Shown here in pieces: positions 7,256-25,178 of a stretch of DNA of 33,872 nucleotides (positions are counted from its first letter, which is position 1; the number at the start of each line of letters is the position of its first letter). The DNA lies in assembly GCA_903923175.1 (NCBI GenBank), contig CAIXWQ010000683.1, positions 1 through 33,872 on the forward strand. Reading direction: 5' to 3'. A program made the position numbers and the translations under genes. The notes below the pieces were generated by a model that ran no database searches, had not been told where the DNA came from, and was given only the letters and a program-made list of their open reading frames with translations. Origin of the DNA: an uncultured delta proteobacterium. Its GTDB lineage: Bacteria; Myxococcota_A; Polyangia; Polyangiales; JADJMO01.

Positions 7256-7271
7256 GCCGAGGAGCACGCCT

Positions 7272-8153: not shown

Positions 8154-8225
8154 CCCCCGCGTGGCGCACCCGGACCACGAGCCGCGAGCGAACGCGAGCC
8201 GTCATTCCATGCGAGCCGCGCGCGT

Positions 8226-8242
8226 GAGCGAGCGGGGATTCC
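8226..8242 (+). repeat. 17-bp dispersed repeat, copy 2
   Basis: An exact second copy of GAGCGAGCGGGGATTCC (copy 1 at 4527-4543), in the 103-bp gap between the MaoC and FabG genes, 2 bp before the FabG ribosome binding site. Confidence 0.55.
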
Positions 8243-8256
8243 TCAGGAGACTCACC

Positions 8257-9696
8257 ATGTCCGACTTCCTCGTCGACCTCGGCGCCAACCCGACCGCCCG
8301 CAAGCTGATCAAGTCCCTCGGCCTGCCGCTCCCGCTGCCGCAGCCGCTGAAGCGTGAGCGCGGCGCCTGGAAGGCGCGACCGCTGATGGACGCGAAGGTC
8401 GCCGTCGGCGCGACCCCCGGCGCCGAGCTCTCGGCGGCGATCGCCGACGCGCTCTCTGCCGCGGGCGCCGATCCCTACGTGCTCGAGGCGCTCCGCCCCG
8501 CCTTCCGAGAGGCGGGCGAGACGCACGGGCGCCCCGCCAAGCCGCTCGAGGCGCTCGGCGAGACCGCCAAGCTCGCAGCGGTCGTCTTCGACGCGACGGG
8601 CATCGCGGACGTGGCCGGGCTCCACGCCGTGTACGAGTTCTTCCACCCGCTCGTGGGGCGGCTCGCGCCGTGCGCGCGGGTGCTCGTGATCGGCCGCGCA
8701 GAGTCCGCCGTCTCCGTCGGGAGCGCGAGCGCGGAGGCCACGGCCGCGCAGTCCGCGCTCGAGGGGTTCGTGCGCAGCGTCGCCAAGGAGATCGGGCGAA
8801 ACGGCTCGACCGCGAACCTGATCTCGGTCGCGCGCGGCGCCGAGGATCACCTCGCCCCGGTGATCCGGTTCGTCGCGTCGCCGATGTCGGCGTTCGTGAC
8901 CGCGCAGCCGATCCGCCTGCACGATGCGGCCAAGAGGCAGGGGGCCGCGCGCCTCACTCGCTCGCTCGAGGGGAAGCTCGCGCTCGTCACCGGCGCCGCG
9001 CGCGGCATCGGTGAGGCGACGGCGCGCACGCTCGCGCGCGAAGGGGCGCGCGTGATTTGCCTCGACCGGCCGGGCGACGAGGCCGCGATCAGCCAGCTCG
9101 CCCGCGAGCTCGCGGGCGTGCCGCTGCTCGTCGATCTCGGCGCCCCGGACGCCCCGGCCACGATCGCGGAGGCCGTGCGCGCCGCTTCCTCGGGCGCCGG
9201 CCTCGACGTCGTCGTGCACAACGCCGGCATCACGCGCGACAAGACGCTCGCGCGGATGAAGCCCGAGCAGTGGGACTCCGTGCTCGACGTGAACCTCGCT
9301 GCAGTCGTGCGCGTCACCGCCGCGCTCGAGCCGCTGCTCCGCGAGGGCGGGCGCGTGATCTGCCTCTCCTCGATCGCCGGCCTCGCCGGGAACGTCGGCC
9401 AGTCGGCCTACGCCGCCTCCAAGGCGGGGATCGTCGGCTGGGTGCGCGCGACCTCGGCCCGGCTCGCGCCCCGCGGGATCACCGTCAACGCCATCGCGCC
9501 CGGATTCATCGAGACGCGCCTCACCGCCGCGATCCCGATGGCGATCCGCGAGGTCGCGCGCCGCCTCGCCGCGCTCGGCCAGGGGGGCCAGCCCGAGGAC
9601 GTCGCGCAGGCCATCACCTTCCTCGCCACGCCCGGCGCCCAAGGGCTCACCGGCAGCACGCTGCGAGTCTGCGGCGGCGCCTTCGTCGGCGCGTAG
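8257..9696 (+). CDS. High-molecular-weight 3-oxoacyl reductase (FabG4-like SDR)
   Basis: A 479-residue protein with two Rossmann-like halves, the arrangement of high-molecular-weight FabG such as mycobacterial FabG4 (about 454 residues). Residues ~1-230 form a flavodoxin-like N-terminal domain without a clear cofactor motif. The C-terminal SDR domain has TGAARGIG (T245 onward), NAG, catalytic Ser372, and Tyr385-x3-Lys389 (YAASK). It would reduce 3-oxoacyl-CoA/ACP or, in degradation, oxidise (R)-3-hydroxyacyl-CoA. ATG 8257 is supported by AGGAGA at 8245-8250; an in-frame upstream ATG at 8161 would add a non-conserved segment with no ribosome binding site. Its pairing with a MaoC hydratase suggests the operon runs through (R)-3-hydroxyacyl intermediates. 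Confidence 0.92.
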   Translation: MSDFLVDLGANPTARKLIKSLGLPLPLPQPLKRERGAWKARPLMDAKVAVGATPGAELSAAIADALSAAGADPYVLEALRPAFREAGETHGRPAKPLEALGETAKLAAVVFDATGIADVAGLHAVYEFFHPLVGRLAPCARVLVIGRAESAVSVGSASAEATAAQSALEGFVRSVAKEIGRNGSTANLISVARGAEDHLAPVIRFVASPMSAFVTAQPIRLHDAAKRQGAARLTRSLEGKLALVTGAARGIGEATARTLAREGARVICLDRPGDEAAISQLARELAGVPLLVDLGAPDAPATIAEAVRAASSGAGLDVVVHNAGITRDKTLARMKPEQWDSVLDVNLAAVVRVTAALEPLLREGGRVICLSSIAGLAGNVGQSAYAASKAGIVGWVRATSARLAPRGITVNAIAPGFIETRLTAAIPMAIREVARRLAALGQGGQPEDVAQAITFLATPGAQGLTGSTLRVCGGAFVGA

Positions 9697-9764
9697 GCCT
9701 CGCGCCTCATCGAGCCTCGTCGAGTCCGTCGGGACGCGCGGGCGCGAGTCACCACACGGTCCCA

Positions 9765-9798
9765 CTGGGGGCTCTGCGAGGCGCCGCCCCAGACCCCC
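9765..9798. repeat. REP-like G/C hairpin in the FabG-thiolase gap
   Basis: CTGGGG (9765-9770) pairs with CCCCAG (9787-9792), and ACCCCC follows. The form GGGGGCTCTGC...CCCCAGACCCCC resembles short palindromic elements scattered between genes in high-GC bacteria. It fills part of a 133-bp gap inside an otherwise compact operon and could act as an mRNA stem-loop. There is no T-run, so it is not a simple terminator. Confidence 0.35.
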
Positions 9799-9829
9799 GC
9801 GAGAGACGGCGTCAACACCGGAGCACCCC

Positions 9830-11140
9830 ATGGCGAAAGCATCCAGAGAGCCCCAGACCCGCCGCGCCGTCATCGTCGCCGGCGCCCGCACGCCGTTCAT
9901 GAAGGCGTTCGGTGACTTCGTGAAGCTCGACACGATCGCGCTCGGCGGCGCGGCGGTGCGCGGCCTCTTGCAGAAGACCGGCCTGCGCTTCGACGAGGTC
10001 GAGTCGATCGTCTGGGGCGGCGTGATCCTGCCGAGCGCCTCGCCGAACGTCGCGCGCGAGATCGCGCTCGACCTCGGGCTCGACGCGGGGTGCGAGGGGA
10101 TGACCGTGACGCGCGCCTGCGCCTCCGGGTTGCAGGCCATCACCCTCGCGGCCGCGGCGATCGAGCGCGGCGAGTACGACGTCGCGATCGCCGGCGGCAG
10201 CGATTCCACGAGCAACGCGGAGATCAAGCTCCCGCAGAAGGTCGTGCACGCGCTCGCGCCGCTGGCGCTCGGCAAGCCGACGCCGGCCGACTACCTCGGC
10301 GTGCTCTCGCAGCTGATGCCGCTCTCGGAGATCCTGCCGCAGCGGCCGAGGATCGCCGAGCGCACCACCGGCGAGGTCATGGGCGCGGCGGCCGAGCGCA
10401 TGGCGCGCCGCAACGAGATCTCGCGCGAAGCCCAGGACGAGCTCGCCGCGCGCTCGCACCACCGCGCCGCGGCCGCGATCGCGGCGGGGCGCTTCGAGGC
10501 CGAGATCGTCCCGGTGCAGACCCCCAGCGGCAAGTGGGTCCACGCCGACGGGCTCGTGCGCGCCGACACCAGCGTCGAGAAGCTCGCCAAGCTGAAGCCC
10601 GTGTTCTCTCGAGATGGCACGCTCACCGCGGGCAACTCGAGCGCGCTCACCGACGGCGCGGGCGCGGTGCTGCTCATGAGCGAGGAGAAGGCGCGCGCGC
10701 TCGGCTACAAGCCGCTCGCGACGATCCGGTCGTGGTCGTACGTGGGCGTCGACCCTGCCGATCAGCTCCTGATCGGCCCCGCGCTCGCGATGCCCCGCGC
10801 GCTCGAGCGCGCCGGCCTGCGCCTCGCCGACGTGGACCTGATCGACATGCACGAGGCGTTCGCCGCGCAGGTGCTCAGCGTCGTCAAGGTGCTCGGCAGC
10901 AAGGCCTGGTCACGCGCGAGGCTCGGTCGCGACGAGGCGGTCGGCGACGTCGATCCCGAGAAGCTCAACGTGCACGGCGGCTCGCTCGCCCTCGGGCACC
11001 CGTTCGGCGGCACGGGCGCGCGCATGGTCACCACGATGGCGAACGAGCTCTCGCGGACGGGCAAGCGCATCGCGCTCCTCGGCATCTGCGCGGCCGGCGG
11101 GCTCGGCGCGGCGGCCGTGCTCGAACGCGTGGAGGGGTGA
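9830..11140 (+). CDS. Acetyl-CoA acyltransferase / thiolase (FadI/FadA2-like)
   Basis: A 436-residue thiolase that cleaves 3-oxoacyl-CoA with CoA, the last beta-oxidation step. All active-site elements are present: nucleophile Cys97 in TRACASG, His341 in HEAFAAQ, His390 in GHPFGGTGAR, and Cys420 in GICAAGG. The length equals E. coli FadI (436) and is close to mycobacterial FadA2 (about 440). A CCGGAGCACCCC stretch precedes ATG 9830 but gives only a weak ribosome binding site. The coding end overlaps the ribosome binding site of the next gene. With the dehydrogenase, hydratase and reductase upstream it completes a full degradation cycle in one operon. Confidence 0.95.
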   Translation: MAKASREPQTRRAVIVAGARTPFMKAFGDFVKLDTIALGGAAVRGLLQKTGLRFDEVESIVWGGVILPSASPNVAREIALDLGLDAGCEGMTVTRACASGLQAITLAAAAIERGEYDVAIAGGSDSTSNAEIKLPQKVVHALAPLALGKPTPADYLGVLSQLMPLSEILPQRPRIAERTTGEVMGAAAERMARRNEISREAQDELAARSHHRAAAAIAAGRFEAEIVPVQTPSGKWVHADGLVRADTSVEKLAKLKPVFSRDGTLTAGNSSALTDGAGAVLLMSEEKARALGYKPLATIRSWSYVGVDPADQLLIGPALAMPRALERAGLRLADVDLIDMHEAFAAQVLSVVKVLGSKAWSRARLGRDEAVGDVDPEKLNVHGGSLALGHPFGGTGARMVTTMANELSRTGKRIALLGICAAGGLGAAAVLERVEG

Positions 11141-11762: not shown

Positions 11763-11797
11763 AGCTTGCGAACGAACACGACGACGGGAGAGGCACG

Positions 11798-12994
11798 ATG
11801 AACCGCGTGTATTTCGAGTTCTTTTGCCCCGTGAAGATCCTCGCCGGCACCTCCGCGTTGGAGCACGTGCCGTTCGAGCTGCGGCGACTCGGCTCGTCGC
11901 GGCCGATGCTGGTGACCGACGCGGGCGTCCGCCGTGCGGGGCTGCTCGCGCCGCTCGAGCGCGCGCTCGCGGAGGGGGACATGGCCTTCGGCGCGGTGTT
12001 CGAGGACGTCCCCGCCGACTCGTCGACCCACGTCGTGGCCGCCTGCGCGCGCCTCTATCGCGAGCGCTCGTGCGACGCGATCGTGGCCGTGGGAGGCGGC
12101 TCGGTCATCGACACGAGCAAGGGGGCGAACATCCTCGTGTCCGAAGGGGGCGAGTCGCTCGAGCCCTATGCCGGCGCCGGCGCGCTGACCCGCCCGCTCA
12201 AGCCCTTCTTCGTGGTTCCGACCACCTCGGGCACCGGCTCCGAGGTCACGCTCGCTGCCGTCATCGCCGACCCCGACAAGGGGGTGAAGCTCCCCTTCAC
12301 CTCGCCGTTCCTGCTGCCGAACGCGGCGGTGCTCGATCCGCGCATGACGGTGACGCTGCCGCCGTTCCTGACCGCGGCCACCGCGATGGACGCGCTCACG
12401 CACGCGGTCGAGGCCTACACCTGCATGGCGAAGAACGCGGTGAGCGACGCCTACGCGGTCGCCGCGGTGAAGAAGGTCGCCGAGCACCTGCCGATCGTGA
12501 TGGCTTCGCCCGGGGATCTCGCGGCGCGCTTCGAGCTCGCGCTGGCCGCGACGCTGGCGGGGATCGCCTTCTCGAACTCGATGACGGGGCTGGTCCACGC
12601 GCTCGGCCACGCGATCGGCGCCCTCTGCCACGTCCACCACGGCGCCTGCATGGGGCTGCTGCTCCCGTACGTGCTCGAGCACAACGCGCACGGCGACGAG
12701 CGCTGCCGTGACGCGATCGGCGAGCTCCTGCTGCCGCTCGATGGGGCGGACGTCTACGCGCGCACCGCGCGAGGCGCGCGCCCGGGCGCAGCGATCGCGT
12801 CCATCCGCGCCCTGCGCGATCGGCTGCACGCCCAGTGCGGGCTGGCGCGCACGCTCGCCGAGACCGGCAAGGTCGGCCGCGCTCAGCTCCCGACGCTCGC
12901 GCGCATGGCGCTCGACGAAGGCGCTCTCGCGTACAATCCGGTCGCCATCGGATACGCCGACGCCCTCGCCGTGCTCGAACGCGCCTGGGCGTGA
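11798..12994 (+). CDS. Iron-containing (group III) alcohol dehydrogenase
   Basis: A 398-residue NAD(P)-dependent dehydrogenase of the Fe-ADH family. The nucleotide site shows VGGGSVIDTSKG and TTSGTGSEVT. Metal ligands appear in the expected spacing: Asp198 and His202 in MDALTHAVEAY, His267 in GLVHALGHAIG, and His281 in HVHHG (14 residues apart, as in FucO). The substrate cannot be read from sequence; short-chain alcohols, hydroxyacids and lactaldehyde are all possible. ATG 11798 is supported by GGGAGAGG a few bases upstream; an open frame continues upstream through the hexamer repeats but lacks a convincing start. It may be the last gene of the fatty-acid operon or separately transcribed after the repeats. 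Confidence 0.92.
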   Translation: MNRVYFEFFCPVKILAGTSALEHVPFELRRLGSSRPMLVTDAGVRRAGLLAPLERALAEGDMAFGAVFEDVPADSSTHVVAACARLYRERSCDAIVAVGGGSVIDTSKGANILVSEGGESLEPYAGAGALTRPLKPFFVVPTTSGTGSEVTLAAVIADPDKGVKLPFTSPFLLPNAAVLDPRMTVTLPPFLTAATAMDALTHAVEAYTCMAKNAVSDAYAVAAVKKVAEHLPIVMASPGDLAARFELALAATLAGIAFSNSMTGLVHALGHAIGALCHVHHGACMGLLLPYVLEHNAHGDERCRDAIGELLLPLDGADVYARTARGARPGAAIASIRALRDRLHAQCGLARTLAETGKVGRAQLPTLARMALDEGALAYNPVAIGYADALAVLERAWA

Positions 12995-13376: not shown

Positions 13377-14462
13377 ATGCCCAAACCCCTCCGCGGAGCC
13401 ATCGTCGGCTACGGATTCATCTCCGAAAACGGGCACATCCCTGCGTACCTGGCCCGCGCGAAGGCGTCGGGGGACGTCCACGTCGTCGCGATCGCGGACG
13501 TCTGTCCCGAGCGTCGCGAGAAGGCGCGCGCGAGCCTGCCGCCCGAGGTCCGGATCTACGAGTCGCACCAGGCTCTGCTGGCCGCCGAGGCGAAGAACCT
13601 CGACTTCGTGGACGTGTCCGCGCCGCCGTACGTGCACGCGGAGATCGCGCACGCCGCCTTCGACGCCGGGCTGCACGTGCTGTGCGAGAAGCCCATCGCG
13701 CCGACCACGGTCGAGGCCCGCGGGCTGCTCGAGCATGCGCGCCGCGCGGGCCGCGTCTTCTTCCCCTGCCACAACTACAAGCACGCGCCGGTCATCAAGG
13801 CCGTGCGCCGCGTGATCGACTCCGGGCGCATCGGCCAGGTGCGGCTCGTCACGCTCAACACGTTCCGCAACACGCACGCCAAGGGCGTGGCCGAGTGGAA
13901 CCGCGACTGGCGCCGCGAGAAGAGGATCTCGGGCGGCGGCATCGCGATGGACCACGGCTCGCACACGTTCTACCTCGCGTTCGACTGGCTCGCGTCGCAC
14001 CCGACCGCCGTCACGGCGAAGATGTCGACGCTCGGCGCCTACGACACCGAGGACAACTTCACCTGCACGCTCACGTTCCCGAACGGCGTCGCGCAGGCCA
14101 TCCTCACGTGGACCTCGGGCGTCCGGAAGGTCATCTACACCATCCACGGCGAGCATGGCGCGATCACGGTCGAGGACGACGACATCCAGGTCGCGCTCAT
14201 GCAGCCGACCAACGGCCCCGACGTGGCGCAGGGCGCCGTGAAGTGGAGCGTCGAGCGCCAGGCCATCGAGTCGAACTGGATGGATGCCAGCCACGTCGGC
14301 TGGTTCAACTCGCTGTTCGATCAGTTCAAGAAGGCCATCGAGACGGGTGACTTCGTGGGCCACGAGGCGCGCGAGGCCTTCCTCTGCATCCAGCTCATCG
14401 ACAACGCGTACGCCTCGGCGTCGCAGGGCTCGAGGGAGCTGCCGCTAGCCACGGAGGTCTGA
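13377..14462 (+). CDS. Gfo/Idh/MocA family NAD(P)-dependent oxidoreductase
   Basis: A 361-residue protein with an N-terminal Rossmann domain (GAIVGYGFISENGHIP) and the family's catalytic E104-K105-P106 (CEKPIAPT). The C-terminal alpha/beta domain holds the substrate motif GGGIAMDHGSH with Asp192/His193/His196. Family members oxidise or reduce a hydroxyl on sugars, inositols or related polyols; the substrate is not evident here. It is the first gene of an operon, with the CDP-alcohol phosphatidyltransferase starting 6 bp after its stop. The pairing suggests it prepares or modifies the polyol that becomes a lipid head group, which is inference. The start is ATG 13377, near-leaderless if the promoter described upstream is right. 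Confidence 0.92.
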   Translation: MPKPLRGAIVGYGFISENGHIPAYLARAKASGDVHVVAIADVCPERREKARASLPPEVRIYESHQALLAAEAKNLDFVDVSAPPYVHAEIAHAAFDAGLHVLCEKPIAPTTVEARGLLEHARRAGRVFFPCHNYKHAPVIKAVRRVIDSGRIGQVRLVTLNTFRNTHAKGVAEWNRDWRREKRISGGGIAMDHGSHTFYLAFDWLASHPTAVTAKMSTLGAYDTEDNFTCTLTFPNGVAQAILTWTSGVRKVIYTIHGEHGAITVEDDDIQVALMQPTNGPDVAQGAVKWSVERQAIESNWMDASHVGWFNSLFDQFKKAIETGDFVGHEAREAFLCIQLIDNAYASASQGSRELPLATEV

Positions 14463-14468
14463 GGCGCG

Positions 14469-15350
14469 ATGTTGGACCGTTCGTTCGCTTGGGCGATCTT
14501 GGTTTGGGCCGCGACGGTCCTGACGCTCTTCTCGTTCCGCCTGCTCACCAAGGGGCGCGCCCGCTTCGATCGGATCGACAAGATCGGCGGCTCGGTGCTC
14601 CTGTCGCAGCGCGTGATGGAGGCGTTCTACTGGACGTTCGGGCCTATCGTCCGCCTCTGCGTCGCGCTCGGCATCACGGCGAACATGATCACGTGGGGCT
14701 CGCTCGTGAGCGGCATCGCGGCCGGCTTCGCGCTGGCGCTCGGCCACTTCGGCATCGGCGGCTTCCTCGGGCTGATGGGCATGCTGCTCGACACGTTCGA
14801 CGGCATGGTCGCGCGCGCGACCCAGAAGTCGTCGGACAGCGGCGAGGTGCTCGACGCCGCGGCGGACCGCTACACCGAGTTCTTCTTCATCGGCGGGCTC
14901 GCCTTCTATTACCGGCAGGACGCCTGGTTCTGCGCGACGGCGATGTTCGCGCTGCTCGCGGCGCTGATGATCAGCTACTCGAGCGCCAAGGCCGAGGCGA
15001 TGCACGTGCCGACGCCTCGCGGCACGATGCGCCGCCACGAGCGGGGGACGTACCTCGTCGCCGGCGCCGTGATCTCCGCGTTCACCGACGGCTGGGAGCT
15101 CGGCCGGTTCGACCACCCTGTCGGCGTGCCGATGCTCACCGGGCTCGCCCTCATCGCGCTCGTCGGAAATGCGTCCGCGGTGCGCCGCTTCATGGCGGTG
15201 GCCCGTTCGGTGCGCGCCAAGGAGCTCGCGGCCCGCGCGGCGGGAGCGGCCGCGCCGACCTCGCAGCCGCCGGTCAGCGAGGACGAGGACGACGAGGTCG
15301 AGGCGCCCGTGCTCCACGCGGCCAGCGTCGACGGCGTGCACGCTCCCTGA
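14469..15350 (+). CDS. CDP-alcohol phosphatidyltransferase family membrane enzyme
   Basis: A 293-residue multi-pass membrane protein that would transfer a phosphatidyl group from CDP-diacylglycerol (or a CDP-alcohol) to a hydroxyl acceptor. The full family signature is present: D108-x2-D111-G112-x2-A115-R116-x8-G125-x3-D129-x3-D133. A first hydrophobic segment (about 8-25) precedes the usual helices. After the last helix comes an Ala-rich stretch and an acidic tail with EDEDDEVE, which is unusual and may be cytoplasmic. The acceptor cannot be deduced; glycerol-3-phosphate, inositol phosphate and others are used in this family. It is translationally close to the Gfo/Idh gene (6-bp gap) and followed by a radical SAM gene. 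Confidence 0.92.
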   Translation: MLDRSFAWAILVWAATVLTLFSFRLLTKGRARFDRIDKIGGSVLLSQRVMEAFYWTFGPIVRLCVALGITANMITWGSLVSGIAAGFALALGHFGIGGFLGLMGMLLDTFDGMVARATQKSSDSGEVLDAAADRYTEFFFIGGLAFYYRQDAWFCATAMFALLAALMISYSSAKAEAMHVPTPRGTMRRHERGTYLVAGAVISAFTDGWELGRFDHPVGVPMLTGLALIALVGNASAVRRFMAVARSVRAKELAARAAGAAAPTSQPPVSEDEDDEVEAPVLHAASVDGVHAP

Positions 15351-15469
15351 GCGCCCTGGGGGCACCTCCCCACGGTTCTGCTGCTTCCCACCGCGAACGC
15401 GGCGCGGCAACGTCGGCGACGAATGCTTTTTTTCGTTCGCTTGGCGCGGGCGAGCTCGGCGCTGCCTGC

Positions 15470-15475
15470 TAGAGT
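15470..15475 (+). promoter_or_regulatory. Candidate -10 element (TAGAGT, preceded by TGC) for the radical SAM gene
   Basis: TGCTAGAGT ends exactly 7 nt before ATG 15483, the same arrangement as at 2847-2852. It predicts a separate, leaderless transcript for the radical SAM gene despite the genes just upstream on the same strand. Confidence 0.5.
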
Positions 15476-15482
15476 CGGCGCG

Positions 15483-16577
15483 ATGAGCGGAGCCAACGAT
15501 CCCGTCAGCCTCGGCACGATCGCGAAGAACCTCCCACGCGCGATCGATGCGAAGCCGATCTGGGCGCAGCTGAACATCACGTGGAAGTGCAACCTCGATT
15601 GCGGCTACTGCTCCGAGTACGACAACTCGAAGGGGCACGTCGAGACCGCCGAGGCGATCCGTCGCATCGACAAGTGCAAGGATCTCGGCTGCGTCCACAC
15701 CGATCTGATCGGCGGCGAGCCGCTGCTGCACCCCGACATCCTCGTGCTGCTCCGGCACGTGGTCTCGCGCGGCATGACCACCGGCATGACGACCAACGCC
15801 TTCCTGCTCAACGAGGAGCGGCTCAAGGAGCTGATCGACTCCGGCATCGGGCGCATCCAGATCTCCGTCGACGCGGTGACGCCGACCAAGGCGACGCCGA
15901 AGTCGCTGAAGACGCTCGCCAAGAAGATCGAGATGGTCGCGAAGACCGACATCTGGTTCCGCGTGAACACGGTCATCTGCGACGAGACCATCGACGACGT
16001 CGAGGAGGTCGCGCGCTTCTGCTTCGACCTCGGCGTCGGCGTGAACTTCTCGGTCGCGCACGATCGCGGCCGCCTCGTGCGCGGGCCGAACGACGCGCGG
16101 ATCCTCGAGAAGGTCCGCTGGCTGCTCGACCGCAAGCACGAGGGGCGCGCGGTCCACACGCCGTACTACCTGATCCGCTACTACGAAGAGGCGCTCCAGG
16201 GGCGGCCGATGGACTGGACCTGCTTCGGCGGCCAGAAGGCGTTCTACGTCTCGCCCGAGGGGCAGTTCCACTGGTGCTACCACACGCCGGGGCAGGGGCT
16301 CTTCCACGACGTCACGCGCGAGCAGATCGCGCGCAACGACGGCAAGAAGGGGTGCGAGACGAACTGCGGCGTGGACTGCGTGATCCACACGTCGCTCCCC
16401 TACTCGAACCTGGCCGACGTCGCGCGCATCGAGGCGGGCGAGCGCCTCATCGAGCTCGGCACGGCGATCAGCGGGCGGCGCAACTCGGCGATCGCGCCGA
16501 CGGCGACCGCGCCGGCTACGTCGACGACGAAGCGACGGCTTCCGACGGTCGACTCCGGAAGACGTACGCTCGATTGA
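15483..16577 (+). CDS. Radical SAM protein with C-terminal SPASM-like cysteine cluster, function unknown
   Basis: A 364-residue radical SAM enzyme. C36-x3-C40-x2-C43 (CNLDCGYC) binds the SAM-cleaving 4Fe-4S cluster, and GGEPLLHPD is the SAM-contacting glycine motif. The C-terminal part has C247, C265, C291, C295 and C299 around SPEGQFHWCYH and GCETNCGVDC, resembling an auxiliary-cluster (SPASM/twitch-like) domain. Such proteins modify peptides, sugars or lipids by radical chemistry; the substrate is unknown. No small precursor peptide gene is evident nearby, so a ribosomal peptide role is not supported, and the context points to lipid or sugar chemistry. ATG 15483 is chosen for the -10-like element 7 nt upstream. 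The last ~20 residues are low-complexity and overlap the convergent GtrA gene by 62 bp. Confidence 0.9.
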   Translation: MSGANDPVSLGTIAKNLPRAIDAKPIWAQLNITWKCNLDCGYCSEYDNSKGHVETAEAIRRIDKCKDLGCVHTDLIGGEPLLHPDILVLLRHVVSRGMTTGMTTNAFLLNEERLKELIDSGIGRIQISVDAVTPTKATPKSLKTLAKKIEMVAKTDIWFRVNTVICDETIDDVEEVARFCFDLGVGVNFSVAHDRGRLVRGPNDARILEKVRWLLDRKHEGRAVHTPYYLIRYYEEALQGRPMDWTCFGGQKAFYVSPEGQFHWCYHTPGQGLFHDVTREQIARNDGKKGCETNCGVDCVIHTSLPYSNLADVARIEAGERLIELGTAISGRRNSAIAPTATAPATSTTKRRLPTVDSGRRTLD

Positions 16578-17049
16578 GCGGGTAGTTCCAGGCGAGGTAG
16601 ACGAGCGCCGCGACGATCGTCTTCGACGCCACGTAGGGGAGCCCGCCGAAGCGCGTGAAGCCCCACACGCCGCCGGTGTGCAGGGCCGAGGAGCCGAGCT
16701 GCACCAGCAGGAAGCGTCCGAACTGGGCGCCCATGGGGCTGTGCTTGGCGTCGAAGGCCCAGTGCTTGTTGATCGTGAAGTTCGAGAGCGAGCCGACTAC
16801 GGTGCCCGCCCACGTCGCTGCGACGTAGCTGACGCCGGCCAGCTCGGTGAGGCCGACGAGCGCCAGGAAGTCGAGCGCCGTCGTGAAGAGCGACGTGACC
16901 GTGCTGCGCGAGAAGACGAGCAGGTGCGAGCTCGCGCGCGCCGCCTCGGGCCGCCCCTCGGTCGGGTGGCGCGTGGGCGCGCCGAGCGTGTCGAGCGTGT
17001 CGAGCGCCTCGCGGGCGTCGTCGGCGGTCGTGGCGGGGGCGTCGTTCAT
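16516..17049 (-). CDS. GtrA-like four-helix membrane protein
   Basis: A 177-residue protein. After a ~40-residue polar N-terminus come four hydrophobic segments with the GtrA/DPMS-type hallmarks LGSLSNF-like VGSLSNFTINKHWAF and YLAWNYPLNRAYVF. Known relatives help move undecaprenyl-phosphate-linked sugars across the membrane or act in wall or O-antigen glycosylation. ATG (complement of 17047-17049) is chosen because the membrane part follows directly; no strong ribosome binding site is seen. Its 3' end overlaps the radical SAM gene on the other strand by 62 bp. It shares a 252-bp divergent region with the aminotransferase. TATGCT on the minus strand (17082-17087) is a possible -10. Confidence 0.9.
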   Translation of the reverse strand: MNDAPATTADDAREALDTLDTLGAPTRHPTEGRPEAARASSHLLVFSRSTVTSLFTTALDFLALVGLTELAGVSYVAATWAGTVVGSLSNFTINKHWAFDAKHSPMGAQFGRFLLVQLGSSALHTGGVWGFTRFGGLPYVASKTIVAALVYLAWNYPLNRAYVFRSRPSEAVASSST

Positions 17050-17260
17050 GTCGTGGAAACCGCTGGGGGAGGGCGCGGCCGAGCATAGCCGAGCGTGCGG
17101 GGCGCGCCCGTTTCGGCGCAAACCGAGCGGCGCGGGGCCGTCGACCGTGTCCAAGGCTGGGCTACCCGAGGTCCGCCCGCCCATTTCGGCCCGAATCGTC
17201 GCGCGGCGAGGCGCGCCCGGCAGTCCGAACGGCAGAGGCCCGGTACGACGCGACACACGA

Positions 17261-17289
17261 TCGCCATCGCGCGCGAGTTGTCCTACAAA
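17261..17289 (+). promoter_or_regulatory. Candidate promoter for the aminotransferase gene
   Basis: TCGCCA (17261-17266), a 17-nt spacer and TACAAA (17284-17289) give a moderate -35/-10 match within the divergent GtrA-aminotransferase gap. Transcription would start near 17296, just before ATG 17302. Confidence 0.35.
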
Positions 17290-17301
17290 GGGCGCCCCGC
17301 G

Positions 17302-18666
17302 ATGAACGACTCCCAGCCCAAGGCGCAGCGTCCCGAACTGAAGACGGAGATCCCCGGCCCCAAGAGCCGCGCCCTCCGCGCGCGCGAGGACGCCCACATG
17401 GCGCCCGGGCTGCAGGGGTTCGCGCTGATGGCCGGCATCGTCGTCGACGAGGCGCGCGGCAGCACGGTCACCGACGTCGACGGCAACTCGTTCCTCGACT
17501 TCATCGGCGGCATCGGCGTCAACGGCCTCGGCCACTCGCACCCGAAGTACGTCGAGGCGGTGCAGCGCCAGGTGGCGAAGGCGTCGGTCGGCTCGTTCAC
17601 CAGCGAGTCGCGCGTGGAGCTGCTCGAGCGCCTCGCCGCGCACGCGCCCGCCAAGAAGCTGCGTCGGCTGCAGATGTACTCGGGGGGCACCGAGGCGGTC
17701 GAGAGCGCCATGCGCCTCGCCAAGTGTCACACCGGCAAGCACGAGTTCGTGAGCTTCTGGGGCGGCTTCCACGGCAAGACGATGGGCACGCTCTCGCTCA
17801 ACGGCACCACGCTGAAGGAGCACCTCGGCCCGATGCTGCCGGGGCACCACCAGATCCCCTACGCGGACTGCTACCGCTGTCCGCTCAAGCTCGAGTCGCC
17901 GAGCTGCGGCGTCGCGTGCGTCGAGTTCGGCCGCCGGCACCTCAAGGCGCAGAGCGCGGGCTCGATCGCGGCGATCGTCGTCGAGCCGATGCAGGGCACC
18001 GCGGGCAACCTGGTGCCGCCGCGCGAATTCCTGCCGGCCGTGGCGTCGCTCGCGAAGGACCTCGGCGCGCTGCTGATCGCCGACGAGATGATCACCGGCT
18101 TCGGGCGCACCGGCACCTTCTGGGGGATCGATCACTCGGGCGTCGAGCCCGACATCGTCACGATCGGCAAGATGTTCGGCGGCGGATTCCCCGTGAGCGG
18201 CCTGCTCACGACCGACGAGATCTCGAGCGCGAAGCCGTGGTCGAACCCGTCTGGCTCGTCGTCGAGCTACGGCGGCAACCCGCTCGCCTCGGCGGCCGCG
18301 GCGGCCGCGCTGCGCATCATCGACGAGGAGCAGCTCGTCGAGAACTCGCGCGTGGTCGGCGAGACGCTGCTCGCGGCCCTGCGACCGTTCGTGGATCGCT
18401 ACCCGTTCGTCGGCGAGGTGCGCGGCGCGGGGCTCTTCCTCTCGATCGAGCTGGTGCGCGACAAGCGGACCAAGGAGCCGCTCTCGAAGGCCGCGACCAC
18501 GCGGATCTTCCACGAGTGCCTGCGCCGCGGCCTGCTGACGATGGCGTACGCGGCGAGCTTCCGCCTGCAGCCGGCGCTCACGCTCGACGAGGCCACCGCG
18601 CTCGCGGGCGTGGAGATCCTCCGCGAGGTCTTCGACCTCGTGGAGAAGGAGCGCCTCTGGGCGTGA
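17302..18666 (+). CDS. PLP-dependent class III aminotransferase
   Basis: A 454-residue class III (ornithine/4-aminobutyrate type) aminotransferase. Visible features are the N-terminal DVDGNSFLDFIGGIGVNGLGHSHP, MYSGGTEAVESA for phosphate binding, FHGKTMGTLS, VVEPMQGTAG, ADEMITGFGRTG with the PLP-contacting Asp, and Lys290 in TIGKMFGGGFP as the Schiff-base lysine. A cysteine-containing insertion (YADCYRCPLKLESPSCGVAC) sits in the middle, as in some GabT-like proteins. The substrate is not certain: 4-aminobutyrate, another omega-amino acid, or an amino-sugar/polyol ketone given the neighbours. AAAGGG lies 9 nt before ATG 17302; an open frame extends upstream to 17095 but without conserved sequence. 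Confidence 0.93.
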   Translation: MNDSQPKAQRPELKTEIPGPKSRALRAREDAHMAPGLQGFALMAGIVVDEARGSTVTDVDGNSFLDFIGGIGVNGLGHSHPKYVEAVQRQVAKASVGSFTSESRVELLERLAAHAPAKKLRRLQMYSGGTEAVESAMRLAKCHTGKHEFVSFWGGFHGKTMGTLSLNGTTLKEHLGPMLPGHHQIPYADCYRCPLKLESPSCGVACVEFGRRHLKAQSAGSIAAIVVEPMQGTAGNLVPPREFLPAVASLAKDLGALLIADEMITGFGRTGTFWGIDHSGVEPDIVTIGKMFGGGFPVSGLLTTDEISSAKPWSNPSGSSSSYGGNPLASAAAAAALRIIDEEQLVENSRVVGETLLAALRPFVDRYPFVGEVRGAGLFLSIELVRDKRTKEPLSKAATTRIFHECLRRGLLTMAYAASFRLQPALTLDEATALAGVEILREVFDLVEKERLWA

Positions 18667-20351: not shown

Positions 20352-23300
20352 CTACGCCATGCGCTTGCGCGCGTAGACCGCCAGCGCGAGCAGGCCGAAG
20401 ACCGCGAGCCGCGCCCCGAGCGGGGAGTCCTCGCCGCGCGCACCCGGCGTGCCGACGCTGCAACTGTTGCTCTGCGCCGCGTCGGGCGGGGACACGCAGG
20501 TGCTCGATGCGACGTCGCACAGCTTGCCGGGCGCGCACTCGCTCGTGGCGCTGCACGACGTGAGGCACGCGCCGAACGCGGGCTCGCACGCGTAGTTCGC
20601 GCAGTCGAACTCGACCGCGTCGTCGGTCGGGCACTGGGCGCCGTGGGCCCGGCAGTACGCGGCGCCGAGGCCGGTCGAGGGGCCCGTGCAGTGGTTGCGC
20701 GCGCACTCGGTGCCCGTGCCGGCCCCGATGCACTGGCCGTTGCCGCCGCAGGTGCCGAGGCACGAGAGGCCCGGACCGCACTCGTTCTTGAGATCGACGC
20801 CGATCGGCTCGAGCGTGCACACGCCCGGGTTCGAGAGGAGCGCGCACGAGTAGCACTGATCTTCGCACGCGGTGTTGCAGCACACTCCCTCGACGCAGAA
20901 GCCGCTCGCGCACTCGCCGTGCTTCGTGCAGCGCTGAAAGCCCGACACCGACGGGACGACGGGCAGCGTCGGCGCGCCGACCTCGGCGATGATCAGGCCG
21001 TCGGCGACATCGACCGACGCATCGGGCGCGGCCTCCGTCGACGCGTCCACCACGTCGGCCTGCGCGTCGGCGTCGGGCGGGGCGTCGGGCGCCGCCTCCG
21101 AGGGCGCGTCGACACCTGCATCGACCGGAGCGGCGATGCAGGTCTTCGTCGTCGGGTCGCACACGCCGCTCGTGCAGTCGCCGTCGCCGAGGCACGAGGA
21201 CTTGCACGCGCTCGCGGAGGCGCAGGCGAGGTTGTTCGCGCAGGGCGTTCCGACCGGCGCGGGGCACGTCGCGGAGGCGCCGTCGCACTGCGCCTGCGAG
21301 AGCACGCCCGAGGCGCAGGTCTTCGTGGCGCAGCTCGAGCCCGCGGCCCGCACCTGGCACGTCCCCTTGGAGCAGACGTCGGCGCATTCGCCGATCGGGC
21401 AGCGCCCGTTCGGATCGGCCATGGCGTCGACCGCCGTGCATTTGCCCGTAGTCCCCGTCAGGTTGCACGCCTGGCACGCGCCGTTGCACGCGACGTCACA
21501 GCAGACGCCGTCGGCGCACGAGCCGCTCGCGCACTCGCCTGCGAGCGCGCAGGAGGCGCCGTTGGCCTTCTTGAGCACGCACGCGCCGCTCGCGATGTCG
21601 CAGGTGCCGACGGCGCAGTCGGCGTCGGCGGCGCACGACGCCTTGCAGAGACCGGAGGCCCCGCACCCGAGGCTGCCGGGGCAGGGGGTCGGCACCGACG
21701 CCGGGCACGACGGGCTCGCGCCGTCGCAGACCGACACCGAGAGCTTGTTCGCCGTGCACGTCGCGGTGCCGCACGCCGTCCCCGAGGGACGCACCGCGCA
21801 GGCGCCCGCGCGGCACATGTCGCTGCACGGCCCCGTCGCGCAGAGGCCGTGCGGATCGGGCGCGCCGTCGACGGGCGCGCACGTCCCGAGCGAGCTCGGG
21901 AGGTTGCACGCCTGGCACGCGCCGCCGCACGCGGTGTGGCAGCACACGCCGTCGGTGCAGACGCCGCTCGTGCACTCGCCGCTCGTCGAGCAGCTCGCGC
22001 CGTCGCTCTTGTGCACGCCACACGTGTGGGTCGCGACGTTGCAGATGCCGCTCATGCAGTCGGCGTCGACCAGACAGCTGGTGTTGCACGTGAGCGCGGA
22101 CGCGCACGCGAGGTGGCCCGGGCACGGCGACGGCGCCGCGGAAGGGCAGGTCGCGCTCGCGCCGTCGCAGGTCGCGGTCGTGAGGACGCCCGCCGAGCAC
22201 GCCGCCGTTCCGCACGACGTGCCGGTGGCCTTGAAGCCGCACGCGCCCGCCTTGCACGTGCTGCCGCACGGGCCGGTCGCGCACACGCCGTGCGGATCGG
22301 TAGCACCATCGACCGCCGTGCAGGTGCCGATCGAGCCCGTGAGGTTGCACGCCTGGCACGCGCCGCCGCAGCCGCTGTTGCAGCAGACCCCGTCGGCGCA
22401 CGTGTTGCTCGCGCACTCGGTGCCGAGCGCGCACGACGCGCCGTTCGCCTTGCGCACGACGCAGTGGCCCGCGGAGCAGCCGTAGCCGCTCGCGCAGTCA
22501 CCGTCGGCCGAACAGGTCGAGTTGCACGCGCCCGCCGTGCAGGTCGCGTAGGGCGCGCAGGTGCGGGCGCCGTGCGGCGCGCCGGTCGCGACGTTCGAAC
22601 AGGTGCCCATCGAGCCGGCGACGTTGCACGCCTGACAGGCCGCGCCGCACCCGGAGTTGCAGCACACGTTGTCGATGCAGAAGCCGCTCTGGCACTGTGC
22701 GTTGCGCAGGCAGGAGGTGCCGATTCCGAGCGCCGTCGTGCAGGCGCCGGCGACGCAGTAGCGGTGCGTGGCGCAGTCTGTGTCGGCGCCGCACGAGCCC
22801 GTCACGCACTGACCGGCCGAGCACGCGTAGCTGCCGCAGGAGCCGTGCGTGCCCTGCGGATCGCCGCTCGCCACGTCGGTGCACGTCCCGACCGAGCCCG
22901 GGACGTTGCACGCCTGACAGACCTTGCTGTTGCAAAGGGAGTTGCAGCAATAGCCGTCGACGCAGGCGCCGCTCGTGCACTCGCCGTTGCGCGAGCACCC
23001 CTGCGCCTGCGCCTTGAGCGGCACGCACTGCGAGCTCAGCGCGTCGCAGTAGTCGCCCGCGACGCACCCCGCGTCGCTGCCGCATTTCGTCGCGCACACG
23101 CCGACGCCCGACGCGTTGGCGCCGCCGCACAGGAACGGCGCGCACGACGGGCCGTGGCCCGCGGGTTGCGCGCCGACGACGGGGGTGCAGACGCCGAGCG
23201 TGCCCGGCAGGTTGCACGCCTCGCAGGGCCCCGCGCAGGCGCGGTCGCAGCAGTAGCCATCGGCCATGATGCCGGTGCTGCAGCTGCCGGGATCGGTGAC

Positions 23301-25178
23301 CGCATCGGGGATGTACATCTCGAGCTTGCCGCTCCCGCCGCTCCCGTTCTGCAGCCCGCCGTACATCAGGACGCGCCCGCCCGGGAGCAGCGCCGCGGCG
23401 TGCTGGATGTGCGTGTAGGCCATCGTCGGGCCGACCGAGAACGTGAGCGTCGTCGGATCGAAGTACTCGGTCTCGCCCGTCGCGAACGCCGACGCGCTGC
23501 TCCCCTTGGCCGTCTCGAACGCGGATCCGCCCGCGATGAGCCAGCGACCGTCGACCAGCTGGGTCATCGTGAAGTTGTTGAGGTAGCGACCGTAGGTGAG
23601 CTTCGACGAGAGCGTCGTCAGCGTGTCCTTCGACGGATCGGCGCCGGGGACGTAGAGGTCGGCGGTACCGCCGGTGTACAGGTAGTCGCAGTACGAGGGG
23701 CCGTAGCACTCGCCGCCGACCAGCAGCACGTTGCCGTTCGCGAGCTTGCGCGCGAGGTGATTGTAGCGCGGGTAGGTGACGGTACCGGCGCTCGCCATGC
23801 TGCTCAGCGCGCTGGGATCGAAGACGACGGGATTGAGGGGGGCGGCGGAGTACGGCTTCGCGCCCGAGATGAGCAGCTTGCCGTTGTCGAGCGCGGTCAT
23901 CTGCTGATAGGCGATCGAGCTCGCGAAGGGCGTCTGGGCGACGAGCGTCCACGACTGGGTGCTGACGTTGAACAGCTCGAGGTTCGGGACGGTGCTGCCG
24001 GTGCCGATGGCGGAGCCGAGGATGGCCACGCGCCCGTCGAGGAGCCGCGCCGTCACGCCGTAGTCGTGGGGCTGGTTCATGTTGCCGACCTTCGTCGACG
24101 TGCCCGCGACGGGGTCGTAGATGAAGGCGCCGGACGCCGACTGCGTGTAGAGGATCGTGCCGTCGGCGAGCTGAATGGGGTTGCCACCCCAGGTCGGCGC
24201 GGGCTTCGCGGTGAACGGATCGAGGGGCGCCGTCGTGTAGGGGTCGTAGAGCGTCGGCGTGCCGCCGGAGCCGACGAACAGCCAATTCTGCGAGCCCGCG
24301 TACGGAAACGCGTAGGCGGGGTAGGGGTCGGTCGCGGCGCTGGAGCTGACCGGGGAGAACGTCGGATCGACGGTCACGGGGAACTTCGCGCCGCGCGTCG
24401 GGACCCGCGTCTCGAGGATCCAGTCGCGCCCGTCCTCGATCACGCGCACCGACGTCGCGAGCTCCTTGCCCGTCGCGTCCCAGGCGACGATCGAATCGCT
24501 CTCGAGCACCGCCTTCCCTTGCTCGTCGACCGCCTCGACGTCCTGATTGGCGCGCATACGGAAGGCGTGGAGGCCTTGCCCGACGTGGAGGCGGTGGCGG
24601 ACGACGACCTCGTCGGTCGGAGCGTGCACGACGCGGAGCTCCTCGACGCGCCCCGGCTCGAGGACGTGAACGACGTCGGTGTGCGGAAGGACGCCGCGGA
24701 AGGTGACCGCCGCGTGATCGATGACCCCCTCGACGGCGGGCGCGCTGCGCACGTCCTCCGAGGCGATCTCGAACCACGCGCTCTCTTCACCGTTCGCGCC
24801 GCGCACACCGACGTGCACGACGCCCGAGGAGCGCTCCGGCACGCTCGCCACGAGCCGGTCGCGGTCGACGCGCTGAAACCGCCCGCCGACGCGGGCGCCG
24901 CTCGGGACGTTCCCCGACAGCATGTACCCCGAGCCGACGCGCGAAAGCCCTGCCTCCGGATCGAGGCGACGGCGTACCGCGGCGAGGCTCCGCAGGTGGA
25001 CGAGCGGCGGCGTTTCGTCGATGAGCGCCTCGGCGCGCGCGCCGCCGAGGGGGGGCGCGCCGCTCGAGGCGTCGACGGACGCGTCGGTCGCCGCGAGACC
25101 GTCGGACCCCGCGGTCGTGCCGCAGGACGCCGTGAACCAGAGGACGAAGAGAACGCCGAGCGTCCGCGTGCGCCGCAT
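20352..25178 (-). CDS. Large secreted surface protein: Kelch-like repeats, Cys-rich repeats, MYXO-CTERM-like anchor
   Basis: 1608 residues. ATG (complement of 25176-25178) has GAGG 7 nt upstream and opens a signal peptide whose region ends at Cys19 (FTASC, an imperfect lipobox). Residues ~30-290 form a beta-rich region ending in VTVDPTF. Residues ~290-625 hold Kelch/galactose-oxidase-like repeats (NVLLVGGE, RWLIAGGS, RVLMYGG). From ~635 to ~1560 come seven Cys-rich units of the pattern DGxCC-x6-CxACN-x5-GxCT, the first at residue 643. Between units 6 and 7 is an Asp/Ala/Pro linker (about 1350-1396). The end, SCSVGTPGARG then a membrane helix and ARKRMA, is MYXO-CTERM-like, which suggests cleavage and outer-surface attachment. 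The role is unknown; adhesion or scaffold is a guess. Confidence 0.9.
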   Translation of the reverse strand: MRRTRTLGVLFVLWFTASCGTTAGSDGLAATDASVDASSGAPPLGGARAEALIDETPPLVHLRSLAAVRRRLDPEAGLSRVGSGYMLSGNVPSGARVGGRFQRVDRDRLVASVPERSSGVVHVGVRGANGEESAWFEIASEDVRSAPAVEGVIDHAAVTFRGVLPHTDVVHVLEPGRVEELRVVHAPTDEVVVRHRLHVGQGLHAFRMRANQDVEAVDEQGKAVLESDSIVAWDATGKELATSVRVIEDGRDWILETRVPTRGAKFPVTVDPTFSPVSSSAATDPYPAYAFPYAGSQNWLFVGSGGTPTLYDPYTTAPLDPFTAKPAPTWGGNPIQLADGTILYTQSASGAFIYDPVAGTSTKVGNMNQPHDYGVTARLLDGRVAILGSAIGTGSTVPNLELFNVSTQSWTLVAQTPFASSIAYQQMTALDNGKLLISGAKPYSAAPLNPVVFDPSALSSMASAGTVTYPRYNHLARKLANGNVLLVGGECYGPSYCDYLYTGGTADLYVPGADPSKDTLTTLSSKLTYGRYLNNFTMTQLVDGRWLIAGGSAFETAKGSSASAFATGETEYFDPTTLTFSVGPTMAYTHIQHAAALLPGGRVLMYGGLQNGSGGSGKLEMYIPDAVTDPGSCSTGIMADGYCCDRACAGPCEACNLPGTLGVCTPVVGAQPAGHGPSCAPFLCGGANASGVGVCATKCGSDAGCVAGDYCDALSSQCVPLKAQAQGCSRNGECTSGACVDGYCCNSLCNSKVCQACNVPGSVGTCTDVASGDPQGTHGSCGSYACSAGQCVTGSCGADTDCATHRYCVAGACTTALGIGTSCLRNAQCQSGFCIDNVCCNSGCGAACQACNVAGSMGTCSNVATGAPHGARTCAPYATCTAGACNSTCSADGDCASGYGCSAGHCVVRKANGASCALGTECASNTCADGVCCNSGCGGACQACNLTGSIGTCTAVDGATDPHGVCATGPCGSTCKAGACGFKATGTSCGTAACSAGVLTTATCDGASATCPSAAPSPCPGHLACASALTCNTSCLVDADCMSGICNVATHTCGVHKSDGASCSTSGECTSGVCTDGVCCHTACGGACQACNLPSSLGTCAPVDGAPDPHGLCATGPCSDMCRAGACAVRPSGTACGTATCTANKLSVSVCDGASPSCPASVPTPCPGSLGCGASGLCKASCAADADCAVGTCDIASGACVLKKANGASCALAGECASGSCADGVCCDVACNGACQACNLTGTTGKCTAVDAMADPNGRCPIGECADVCSKGTCQVRAAGSSCATKTCASGVLSQAQCDGASATCPAPVGTPCANNLACASASACKSSCLGDGDCTSGVCDPTTKTCIAAPVDAGVDAPSEAAPDAPPDADAQADVVDASTEAAPDASVDVADGLIIAEVGAPTLPVVPSVSGFQRCTKHGECASGFCVEGVCCNTACEDQCYSCALLSNPGVCTLEPIGVDLKNECGPGLSCLGTCGGNGQCIGAGTGTECARNHCTGPSTGLGAAYCRAHGAQCPTDDAVEFDCANYACEPAFGACLTSCSATSECAPGKLCDVASSTCVSPPDAAQSNSCSVGTPGARGEDSPLGARLAVFGLLALAVYARKRMA
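20830..23260 (-). repeat. Seven tandem Cys-rich coding repeats
   Basis: Within the surface-protein gene the block encoding CCN-x3-CxxxCQACNxxGSxGTC recurs near 23250-23180, 22955-22885, 22670-22600, 22390-22320, 21950-21880, 21510-21440 and 20890-20820. The two units near 22350 and 21900 are spaced by about 440 bp and include an extra CDGASATCP-type segment; others are spaced by about 280-300 bp. Copies differ in sequence, so the expansion is not very recent. Confidence 0.75.

What the first reader, a model, noticed from the sequence alone, without database searches (positions are those of the whole stretch)
13377..18666. Candidate undescribed head-group pathway: Gfo/Idh, CDP-alcohol transferase, radical SAM, GtrA, class III aminotransferase
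A polyol oxidoreductase sits 6 bp from a phosphatidyltransferase. These are followed by a radical SAM enzyme with an auxiliary cysteine cluster, a GtrA-type lipid-linked sugar transporter and a PLP aminotransferase. Together they could oxidise, aminate and radically rearrange a polyol or sugar head group, attach it to a phospholipid and move it across the membrane. No known pathway with this exact set comes to mind. The link is by proximity only.
Basis: inference. Interest (0 to 1): 0.6.

Follow-up and report, generated by a model that had tools for sequence, protein, structure and literature searches.

The report
Candidate amino-inositol membrane lipid genes
These five genes belong to a conserved bacterial gene block for making inositol-headed membrane lipids, and two of the added genes look able to replace one inositol hydroxyl with an amino group, which would give a membrane lipid head group I could not find described.

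Summary
All five genes are present at the stated place, and both the domain calls and the 6-bp gap are right. One correction: GtrA is on the minus strand (17049-16516) and overlaps the radical SAM 3' end, so this is not one operon. The grouping is not chance. In 144 genomes of the class, Gfo/Idh and the aminotransferase (AT3) occur together (19 of 21 each, Fisher p about 2e-19), usually within 4 kb of the CDP-alcohol transferase, while the window's flanking genes are almost never conserved there. One other genome holds all five within 6 kb. The substrate can be narrowed: the transferase is a phosphatidylinositol-phosphate-synthase relative that keeps its inositol-phosphate arginines. In relatives the block adjoins inositol-phosphate synthase, a PgpA-type phosphatase, an inositol-phosphoceramide synthase and an MMPL exporter, the set known from Bacteroides BT_1522-1526. 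The Gfo/Idh-AT3 pair also occurs in a second, CDP-inositol-type cluster in other phyla. Best reading: an inositol-lipid locus in which Gfo/Idh oxidises and AT3 aminates the cyclitol, giving an inosamine-headed phospholipid. The locus assignment is strong; the amine product is inferred; the radical SAM step is open.

The parts
13377..14462 (+). Gfo/Idh/MocA NAD(P)-dependent oxidoreductase; proposed inositol(-phosphate) dehydrogenase
   Evidence: Pfam PF01408/PF22725/PF02894; intact EKP (K105) and D192/H196 motifs, invariant in 16 orthologues
14469..15350 (+). CDP-alcohol phosphatidyltransferase of the phosphatidylinositol-phosphate synthase type
   Evidence: Pfam PF01066; best NCBIfam models are archaetidylinositol-P and phosphatidylinositol-P synthases; the six strong PDB hits are inositol-phosphate transferases plus AF2299; invariant D108-D111-G112-A115-R116...G125-D129-D133 and R134/R189/R192, S169 kept
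15483..16577 (+). Radical SAM protein with a twitch/SPASM-like auxiliary cluster domain; reaction unknown
   Evidence: Pfam PF04055; cysteine pattern invariant in orthologues; 56-65% orthologues beside GtrA in 11 genomes
16516..17049 (-). GtrA/DPMS-type membrane protein, antisense to its neighbours; counterpart by family and neighbourhood of BT_1524
   Evidence: Pfam PF04138 E 2.6e-18; orthologue convergent with the radical SAM gene in 11 genomes
17302..18666 (+). Class III PLP aminotransferase (AT3); proposed inosose(-phosphate) aminotransferase
   Evidence: Pfam PF00202 E 8.5e-97; PLP lysine in TxGK (K290) and DEM...GFGRTG kept; EPxQGT signature with T233 invariant in 18 orthologues

Best explanation
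The block is part of an inositol-lipid pathway with a head-group modification. Proposed order: MIPS (elsewhere in this genome) makes L-myo-inositol-1-phosphate from glucose-6-phosphate; Gfo/Idh oxidises one ring hydroxyl to a ketone; AT3 transfers an amino group, giving an inosamine (phosphate); the CDP-AP joins it to CDP-diacylglycerol; a PgpA-type phosphatase removes the extra phosphate, and a PI-ceramide synthase homologue can pass the head group to ceramide; GtrA and an MMPL pump help place the lipid. The radical SAM enzyme makes a further change, most plausibly a second ring oxidation like BtrN or another head-group step. SHOWN here: gene content, synteny, motif conservation, co-occurrence. 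INFERRED: that the CDP-AP takes an inositol-type phosphate (strong), that Gfo/Idh and AT3 act in sequence on the cyclitol (moderate), whether they act before or after attachment (unknown), the radical SAM role (weak).
For: (1) Co-occurrence in 144 class genomes: Gfo with AT3 19/21, p 1.8e-19; every Gfo genome has the CDP-AP; AT3 within 3.5 kb of the CDP-AP in 24 of 34 genomes; Gfo near AT3 or CDP-AP in 17 of 21. (2) The CDP-AP is PIP-synthase-like and keeps R94, S132, R152 and R155 equivalents (R134, S169, R189, R192) (residue roles from PMC4634129 and PMC6506517). (3) Synteny with MIPS, PI-dihydroceramide synthase, PgpA and MMPL; L136 carries MIPS-Gfo-CDPAP-GtrA-AT3-PIDHCsyn-PgpA-MMPL on one strand, and L114, L129, L130 and L124 are similar. 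(4) Plain versions without Gfo and AT3 exist (L063 MIPS-CDPAP-GtrA-MMPL; L068 CDPAP-GtrA-PIDHCsyn-PgpA-MMPL), so Gfo+AT3 look like an added module. (5) The same AT3-Gfo pair (AT3 50-56%, Gfo about 34%) sits in another inositol cluster (HAD, nucleotidyltransferase, CDP-AP of DIPP-synthase type, MIPS) in Nitrospirae, Elusimicrobia, Acidobacteria and others. (6) Own genome has MIPS (C56), two PI-ceramide-synthase homologues, and a 55% MMPL with PgpA beside it. (7) Precedent: IolG (inositol dehydrogenase) plus aminotransferase MosB give scyllo-inosamine (PMC6668481).
Against: No enzyme or lipid assay exists. MIPS is not in this window, and MIPS is common in the class (103/144), so its mere presence says little. 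AT3 is class III, whereas the characterised inosose aminotransferases I know of are in the DegT family. Some relatives have CDPAP-AT3 without a Gfo/Idh orthologue (for example L066, L090, L092, L095), so there the ketone must come from another enzyme. The Gfo/Idh matches no equivalog model over its cut-off. The K135 equivalent of PIP synthase is S172 here. Most of the radical SAM orthologues lie away from Gfo/AT3.
Confidence: 0.6

Rival explanations
1. Plain inositol-lipid locus: the CDP-AP and GtrA make ordinary PI or PI-ceramide, and Gfo/Idh, AT3 and the radical SAM protein decorate something else (for example a sugar added onto PI, giving a glucosamine- or kanosamine-PI type glycolipid).
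For: CDP-AP, GtrA, MIPS, PgpA and PAP2 genes match BT_1522-1526, which gives plain PI lipids. Gfo/Idh plus aminotransferase pairs that make amino sugars are known (GnnA/GnnB, NtdC/NtdA; own knowledge). GtrA proteins are tied to lipid-linked sugars.
Against: No glycosyltransferase recurs in the block in the loci clustered. AT3 overlaps or abuts the CDP-AP gene in many genomes, and Gfo/AT3 are absent from the plain loci that keep CDP-AP and GtrA.
Confidence: 0.22
2. Gfo/Idh and AT3 act upstream of MIPS: glucose-6-phosphate to 3-oxo-glucose-6-phosphate to kanosamine-6-phosphate (as NtdC/NtdA), which is then cyclised to an amino-inositol phosphate. The lipid product is similar, the order differs.
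For: Glucose-6-phosphate is the MIPS substrate, and the Gfo-type NtdC and aminotransferase NtdA of Bacillus work on it (own knowledge). The AT3-Gfo pair adjoins MIPS in several loci.
Against: MIPS is not known to accept an amino-glucose phosphate; many blocks lack an adjacent MIPS.
Confidence: 0.1
3. Chance or loose neighbourhood: five unrelated metabolic genes.
For: The genes are on both strands here, and the aminotransferase and Gfo/Idh families are large.
Against: Co-occurrence and synteny across families and phyla, with the window's flanking genes not conserved.
Confidence: 0.05
4. Hopanoid side-chain pathway (HpnH radical SAM, HpnO class III aminotransferase, HpnN exporter).
For: The neighbouring MMPL protein is HpnN-like, AT3 is class III like HpnO, and a radical SAM gene is present.
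Against: MMPL scores far below the HpnN cut-off (189 vs 752 bits). The radical SAM protein's 25 best NCBIfam models do not include HpnH. CDP-AP and MIPS have no place in that pathway.
Confidence: 0.03

Closest known systems
Bacteroides thetaiotaomicron inositol-lipid locus BT_1522-BT_1526 (PMC9246714)
   Same: PIP-synthase-type CDP-AP, GtrA, and in relatives PgpA-type phosphatase, PI-dihydroceramide synthase and MIPS in one block
   Different: Adds Gfo/Idh, a class III aminotransferase, an MMPL exporter and in some lineages a radical SAM enzyme; a text search of that paper for 'aminotransferase' gave no hit
Alternative Bacteroides/Prevotella cluster (NTP transferase, HAD hydrolase, phosphatidyltransferase; PMC9246714)
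   Same: Same enzyme classes as the second cluster type found here in Nitrospirae, Elusimicrobia and others
   Different: That second type here also has AT3, Gfo/Idh and a putative ATP-grasp protein
Rhizopine / streptidine inosamine pathways (IolG or StrI plus MosB or StsC)
   Same: Gfo/Idh inositol dehydrogenase followed by a PLP aminotransferase to make an inosamine
   Different: Products are soluble metabolites; as far as I know the aminotransferases are DegT-type, not class III; no CDP-AP
BtrN, radical SAM dehydrogenase of 2-deoxystreptamine (PDB 4M7S/4M7T)
   Same: Radical SAM with one auxiliary [4Fe-4S]; acts on an aminocyclitol; the OTHER radical SAM subfamily beside AT3 in relatives hits BtrN at 2.6e-8
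   Different: The window radical SAM itself gives no BtrN hit; its best PDB match is PqqE
Mycobacterial PIP synthase PgsA1
   Same: Catalytic motif and most inositol-phosphate-binding residues
   Different: N- and C-terminal extensions; K135 equivalent is Ser; no aminating partners

Membership tests
Phosphatidylinositol-phosphate synthase (CDP-AP) | DX2DGX2AR...GX3DX3D motif | tested here: met
   D108, D111, G112, A115, R116, G125, D129, D133 invariant in 21 sequences
Phosphatidylinositol-phosphate synthase (CDP-AP) | Inositol-phosphate-binding R94, S132, R155 (MtPgsA1 numbering) | tested here: met
   R134 (next to D133), S169 and R192 by the pairwise alignment; R134 and R192 invariant, S169 nearly so; residue roles
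Phosphatidylinositol-phosphate synthase (CDP-AP) | R195 of MtPgsA1 | tested here: inconclusive
   R240 is invariant in about the right place, but lies outside the aligned stretch
Phosphatidylinositol-phosphate synthase (CDP-AP) | NCBIfam NF045883 score over cut-off | tested here: not met
   85.8 bits against 170: a relative, not a curated member
BT_1522-1526 type inositol-lipid locus | MIPS, PIPS, PgpA phosphatase, PI-DHC synthase and GtrA together | tested here: inconclusive
   Window holds PIPS-like and GtrA only; MIPS, PgpA and PI-DHC synthase homologues lie on other contigs of the genome; all together in relatives L136 and L113/L114
Inosamine pathway (inositol dehydrogenase + aminotransferase) | Gfo/Idh enzyme with catalytic Lys and Asp/His | tested here: met
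   K105 (CEKP) and D192-H193..H196 invariant
Inosamine pathway (inositol dehydrogenase + aminotransferase) | Inositol-specific Gfo/Idh by curated model | tested here: not met
   TIGR04380 57.6 bits against cut-off 355; NF052679 39 against 540
Inosamine pathway (inositol dehydrogenase + aminotransferase) | DegT-family aminotransferase | tested here: not met
   AT3 is Aminotran_3, PF00202
Inosamine pathway (inositol dehydrogenase + aminotransferase) | Activity on inositol/inosose | not testable with these tools
   needs enzyme assay
BtrN-like radical SAM dehydrogenase | CX3CX2C plus twitch CX9-15GX4C and further Cys | tested here: met
   C36/C40/C43; C247-X12-G260-X4-C265; C291/C295/C299; the pattern is shared by many SPASM/twitch families
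BtrN-like radical SAM dehydrogenase | Sequence similarity to BtrN | tested here: not met
   no BtrN hit at E 0.1 for the window protein
Hopanoid side-chain pathway | HpnH-type radical SAM and HpnN | tested here: not met
   HpnH not among the 25 best models of the radical SAM protein; MMPL of relatives under the HpnN cut-off

The most novel reading that the evidence does not exclude
A new class of bacterial membrane lipid, phosphatidyl- and ceramide-phospho-inosamine (amino-inositol head group), made by an added oxidase-aminase pair (Gfo/Idh + class III aminotransferase) that has joined two different inositol-lipid assembly lines, with a radical SAM enzyme adding a further head-group change in some Myxococcota.
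Probability: 0.5. Interest if true: 0.75.

Novelty: new variant of a known kind. Interest (0 to 1): 0.62.

Why it matters
Bacterial inositol lipids are considered rare and their described head groups carry no ring nitrogen. If the reading holds, these bacteria convert an acidic lipid head group into a zwitterionic or basic one, a change expected to affect surface charge, and the same two-gene module recurs across several phyla. It gives four testable genes and a mass signature (head group 0.984 Da lighter than inositol phosphate).

Tried and rejected
Single operon of five: rejected, GtrA is antisense. Hopanoid pathway: considered because of the HpnN-like MMPL, radical SAM and class III aminotransferase; rejected on scores and gene content. 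Window radical SAM as a BtrN orthologue: no hit, though the other radical SAM subfamily beside AT3 does hit BtrN and BlsE. MIPS presence alone as evidence: weak, 103 of 144 genomes have it (20/21 of Gfo genomes, p 0.005). Promoter/terminator scan: nothing above shuffles. CDP-AP paralogue in the own genome (C1227): no partner genes beside it. Literature: five searches of the held open-access library found no inosamine, aminocyclitol or amino-inositol phospholipid or matching gene set; subscription papers and preprints are not covered. The M. xanthus lipidome paper (PMC4242454) was not held.
Full report
WHAT IS THERE. The window reads five intact genes between 13377 and 18666: Gfo/Idh (13377-14462 +), CDP-alcohol phosphatidyltransferase (14469-15350 +, 6 bp downstream), radical SAM (15483-16577 +), GtrA (17049-16516, minus strand) and class III aminotransferase, AT3 (17302-18666 +). 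Pfam confirms each domain. GtrA is antisense to its neighbours: it overlaps the radical SAM stop by 62 bp and is divergent from AT3. At most the first three genes can be one transcript here. The host genome is a 10.7-Mb, 1422-contig assembly with the window as contig C683.

IS IT MORE THAN CHANCE. In 144 genomes of the same class, Gfo/Idh (E <= 1e-60) is in 21 and close AT3 (E <= 1e-180) in 21, with 19 shared (Fisher p 1.8e-19); two of the apparent exceptions (G138, G074) are genes cut by contig ends (L053, L107). All 21 Gfo genomes have the CDP-AP. AT3 lies within 3.5 kb of the CDP-AP in 24 of 34 genomes, although most assemblies are fragmented; Gfo lies near AT3 or the CDP-AP in 17 of 21. 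These p-values ignore shared ancestry, so the synteny matters more. In 101 relative loci the five genes are hit 15 to 58 times, the window's other tested genes at most twice. Those loci were chosen because they hold one of the five, so the contrast with the flanking genes is the informative part.

THE SECOND GENOME WITH ALL FIVE. G021 (L059) has MMPL and radical SAM on one strand and GtrA, AT3, CDP-AP and Gfo/Idh on the other, within about 8 kb. In other genomes of family f9 the radical SAM gene sits against a convergent GtrA (11 genomes) and in seven of these beside the MMPL gene, on a different contig from Gfo-AT3. So the radical SAM link is real but looser.

WHAT THE SUBSTRATE IS. The CDP-AP scores best against archaetidylinositol-phosphate and phosphatidylinositol-phosphate synthases, under their cut-offs. 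Its strong PDB matches are the IPCT-DIPPS enzyme, mycobacterial and Renibacterium PIP synthases, and AF2299. The residues that bind inositol phosphate in MtPgsA1 (R94, S132, R152, R155; PMC6506517, PMC4634129) align with R134, S169, R189 and R192, which are invariant or nearly so in 21 homologues. K135 is replaced by Ser; R137 is Lys, a change reported as wild-type-like. R195 probably corresponds to the invariant R240, but that stretch was not aligned.

NEIGHBOURS IN RELATIVES. Clustering of called genes around the block found recurring partners outside the five: an MMPL/RND protein (22 loci), myo-inositol-phosphate synthase, a PAP2 protein matching the phosphoinositol dihydroceramide synthase model (under cut-off), and a PgpA-family phosphatase. 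These are the classes that make inositol lipids in Bacteroides: BT_1522 PI-DHC synthase, BT_1523 PIP synthase, BT_1524 GtrA (deletion gave no lipid phenotype), BT_1525 PgpA-type PIP phosphatase, BT_1526 MIPS (PMC9246714). A scan of named genomes with the Gfo/Idh alignment gave 22 loci at 51-69% identity from Myxococcota, Bdellovibrionota and 'Deltaproteobacteria' MAGs. L136 carries MIPS, Gfo/Idh, CDP-AP, GtrA, AT3, PI-DHC synthase, PgpA and MMPL in a row on one strand; L114, L129, L130, L124 and L133 are variants. Loci with the inositol set but without Gfo and AT3 also exist (L063, L068). The own genome has MIPS on C56, two PI-DHC-synthase homologues on C437 and C30, and MMPL beside PgpA on C1322.

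A SECOND CLUSTER TYPE. Gfo/Idh hits at about 34% (L147-L157: Nitrospirae, Elusimicrobia, Acidobacteria, Rokubacteria, Syntrophobacteraceae, Desulfarculales, Gemmatimonadetes) nearly all have AT3 (47-56%) next door, and in many a HAD hydrolase, a nucleotidyltransferase, a CDP-AP nearest to di-inositol-phosphate synthase, and MIPS. This resembles the 'alternative' inositol-lipid cluster of Bacteroides vulgatus in the same paper. The AT3-Gfo pair is thus tied to two inositol assembly lines, which is the best argument that it acts on the cyclitol. An extra protein in that type gives a weak match to an ATP-grasp glutamate ligase (E 4e-4), which would fit an amine on the head group; this is only a hint.

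MECHANISM. Gfo/Idh keeps its catalytic lysine and Asp/His; AT3 keeps its PLP lysine, and the Glu of the EPxQGE motif in its PDB relative is an invariant Thr in 18 orthologues. From family knowledge that Glu is the gateway switch of ornithine and GABA aminotransferases, so its loss argues against an omega-amino-acid substrate (inference). Oxidation of inositol by a Gfo/Idh enzyme followed by transamination to scyllo-inosamine has been shown with IolG and MosB (PMC6668481). The proposed product is therefore an inosamine phospholipid and, with the PI-DHC synthase, an inosamine phosphoceramide. Whether the pair acts on free inositol, inositol phosphate, its precursor or the finished lipid is unknown.

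THE RADICAL SAM. The window protein has the twitch-type cysteine pattern but no similarity to BtrN. In some relatives that have CDP-AP and AT3, a different radical SAM/SPASM protein follows AT3, and this one does match BtrN and BlsE; it could supply the ketone there. Homologues of the window type (37-38%) also occur in L080, beside a CDP-AP, an inositol-phosphate cytidylyltransferase-like protein (E 1.1e-37), MIPS and MMPL, and in L079 near a DIPP-synthase-like CDP-AP, both without Gfo/AT3. So it belongs with inositol lipids in general. A second ring oxidation is my guess; other changes are open.

LIMITS. The literature check covers only the open-access library, and five searches found nothing matching. 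Gene calls in relatives came from a simple composition-based caller, backed by tblastn for the named genes.

Noticed in passing
L147:4188-5024 (+) and homologues in L144, L146, L148-L152, L154, L156: A ~280-aa protein with no Pfam hit, weakly matching an ATP-grasp glutamate ligase (E 4e-4), upstream of AT3-Gfo in the second cluster type; might aminoacylate the head group.
   Followed up: partly
L080:1485-12946: An inositol-type cluster with MIPS, MMPL, a glycosyltransferase, two CDP-APs, an inositol-phosphate cytidylyltransferase-like protein and two radical SAM genes, with no Gfo/AT3 detected.
   Followed up: partly
L066, L090, L091, L092, L095 (beside AT3): A different radical SAM/SPASM subfamily, similar to BtrN and BlsE, follows AT3 in genomes where no Gfo/Idh orthologue was seen beside AT3.
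   Followed up: partly
G000:C1227:10979-11818 (L049): A 64% identical paralogue of the CDP-AP in the same genome, without partner genes.
   Followed up: partly
window 20352-25472 (-): A 1706-aa cysteine-rich repeat protein whose C-terminus looks like a MYXO-CTERM-type sorting tail (Cys, then hydrophobic segment and basic end).
   Followed up: no
window 11795-12994 (+): Iron-containing alcohol dehydrogenase, best model ErcA (under cut-off), upstream of the block on the same strand but not conserved with it.
   Followed up: partly
window 5327-11140 (+): Acyl-CoA dehydrogenase, probable MaoC-like hydratase, 3-oxoacyl-ACP reductase (PRK08261 over cut-off) and FadI-like thiolase in a row: a fatty-acid oxidation or 3-hydroxyacyl cluster.
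   Followed up: no
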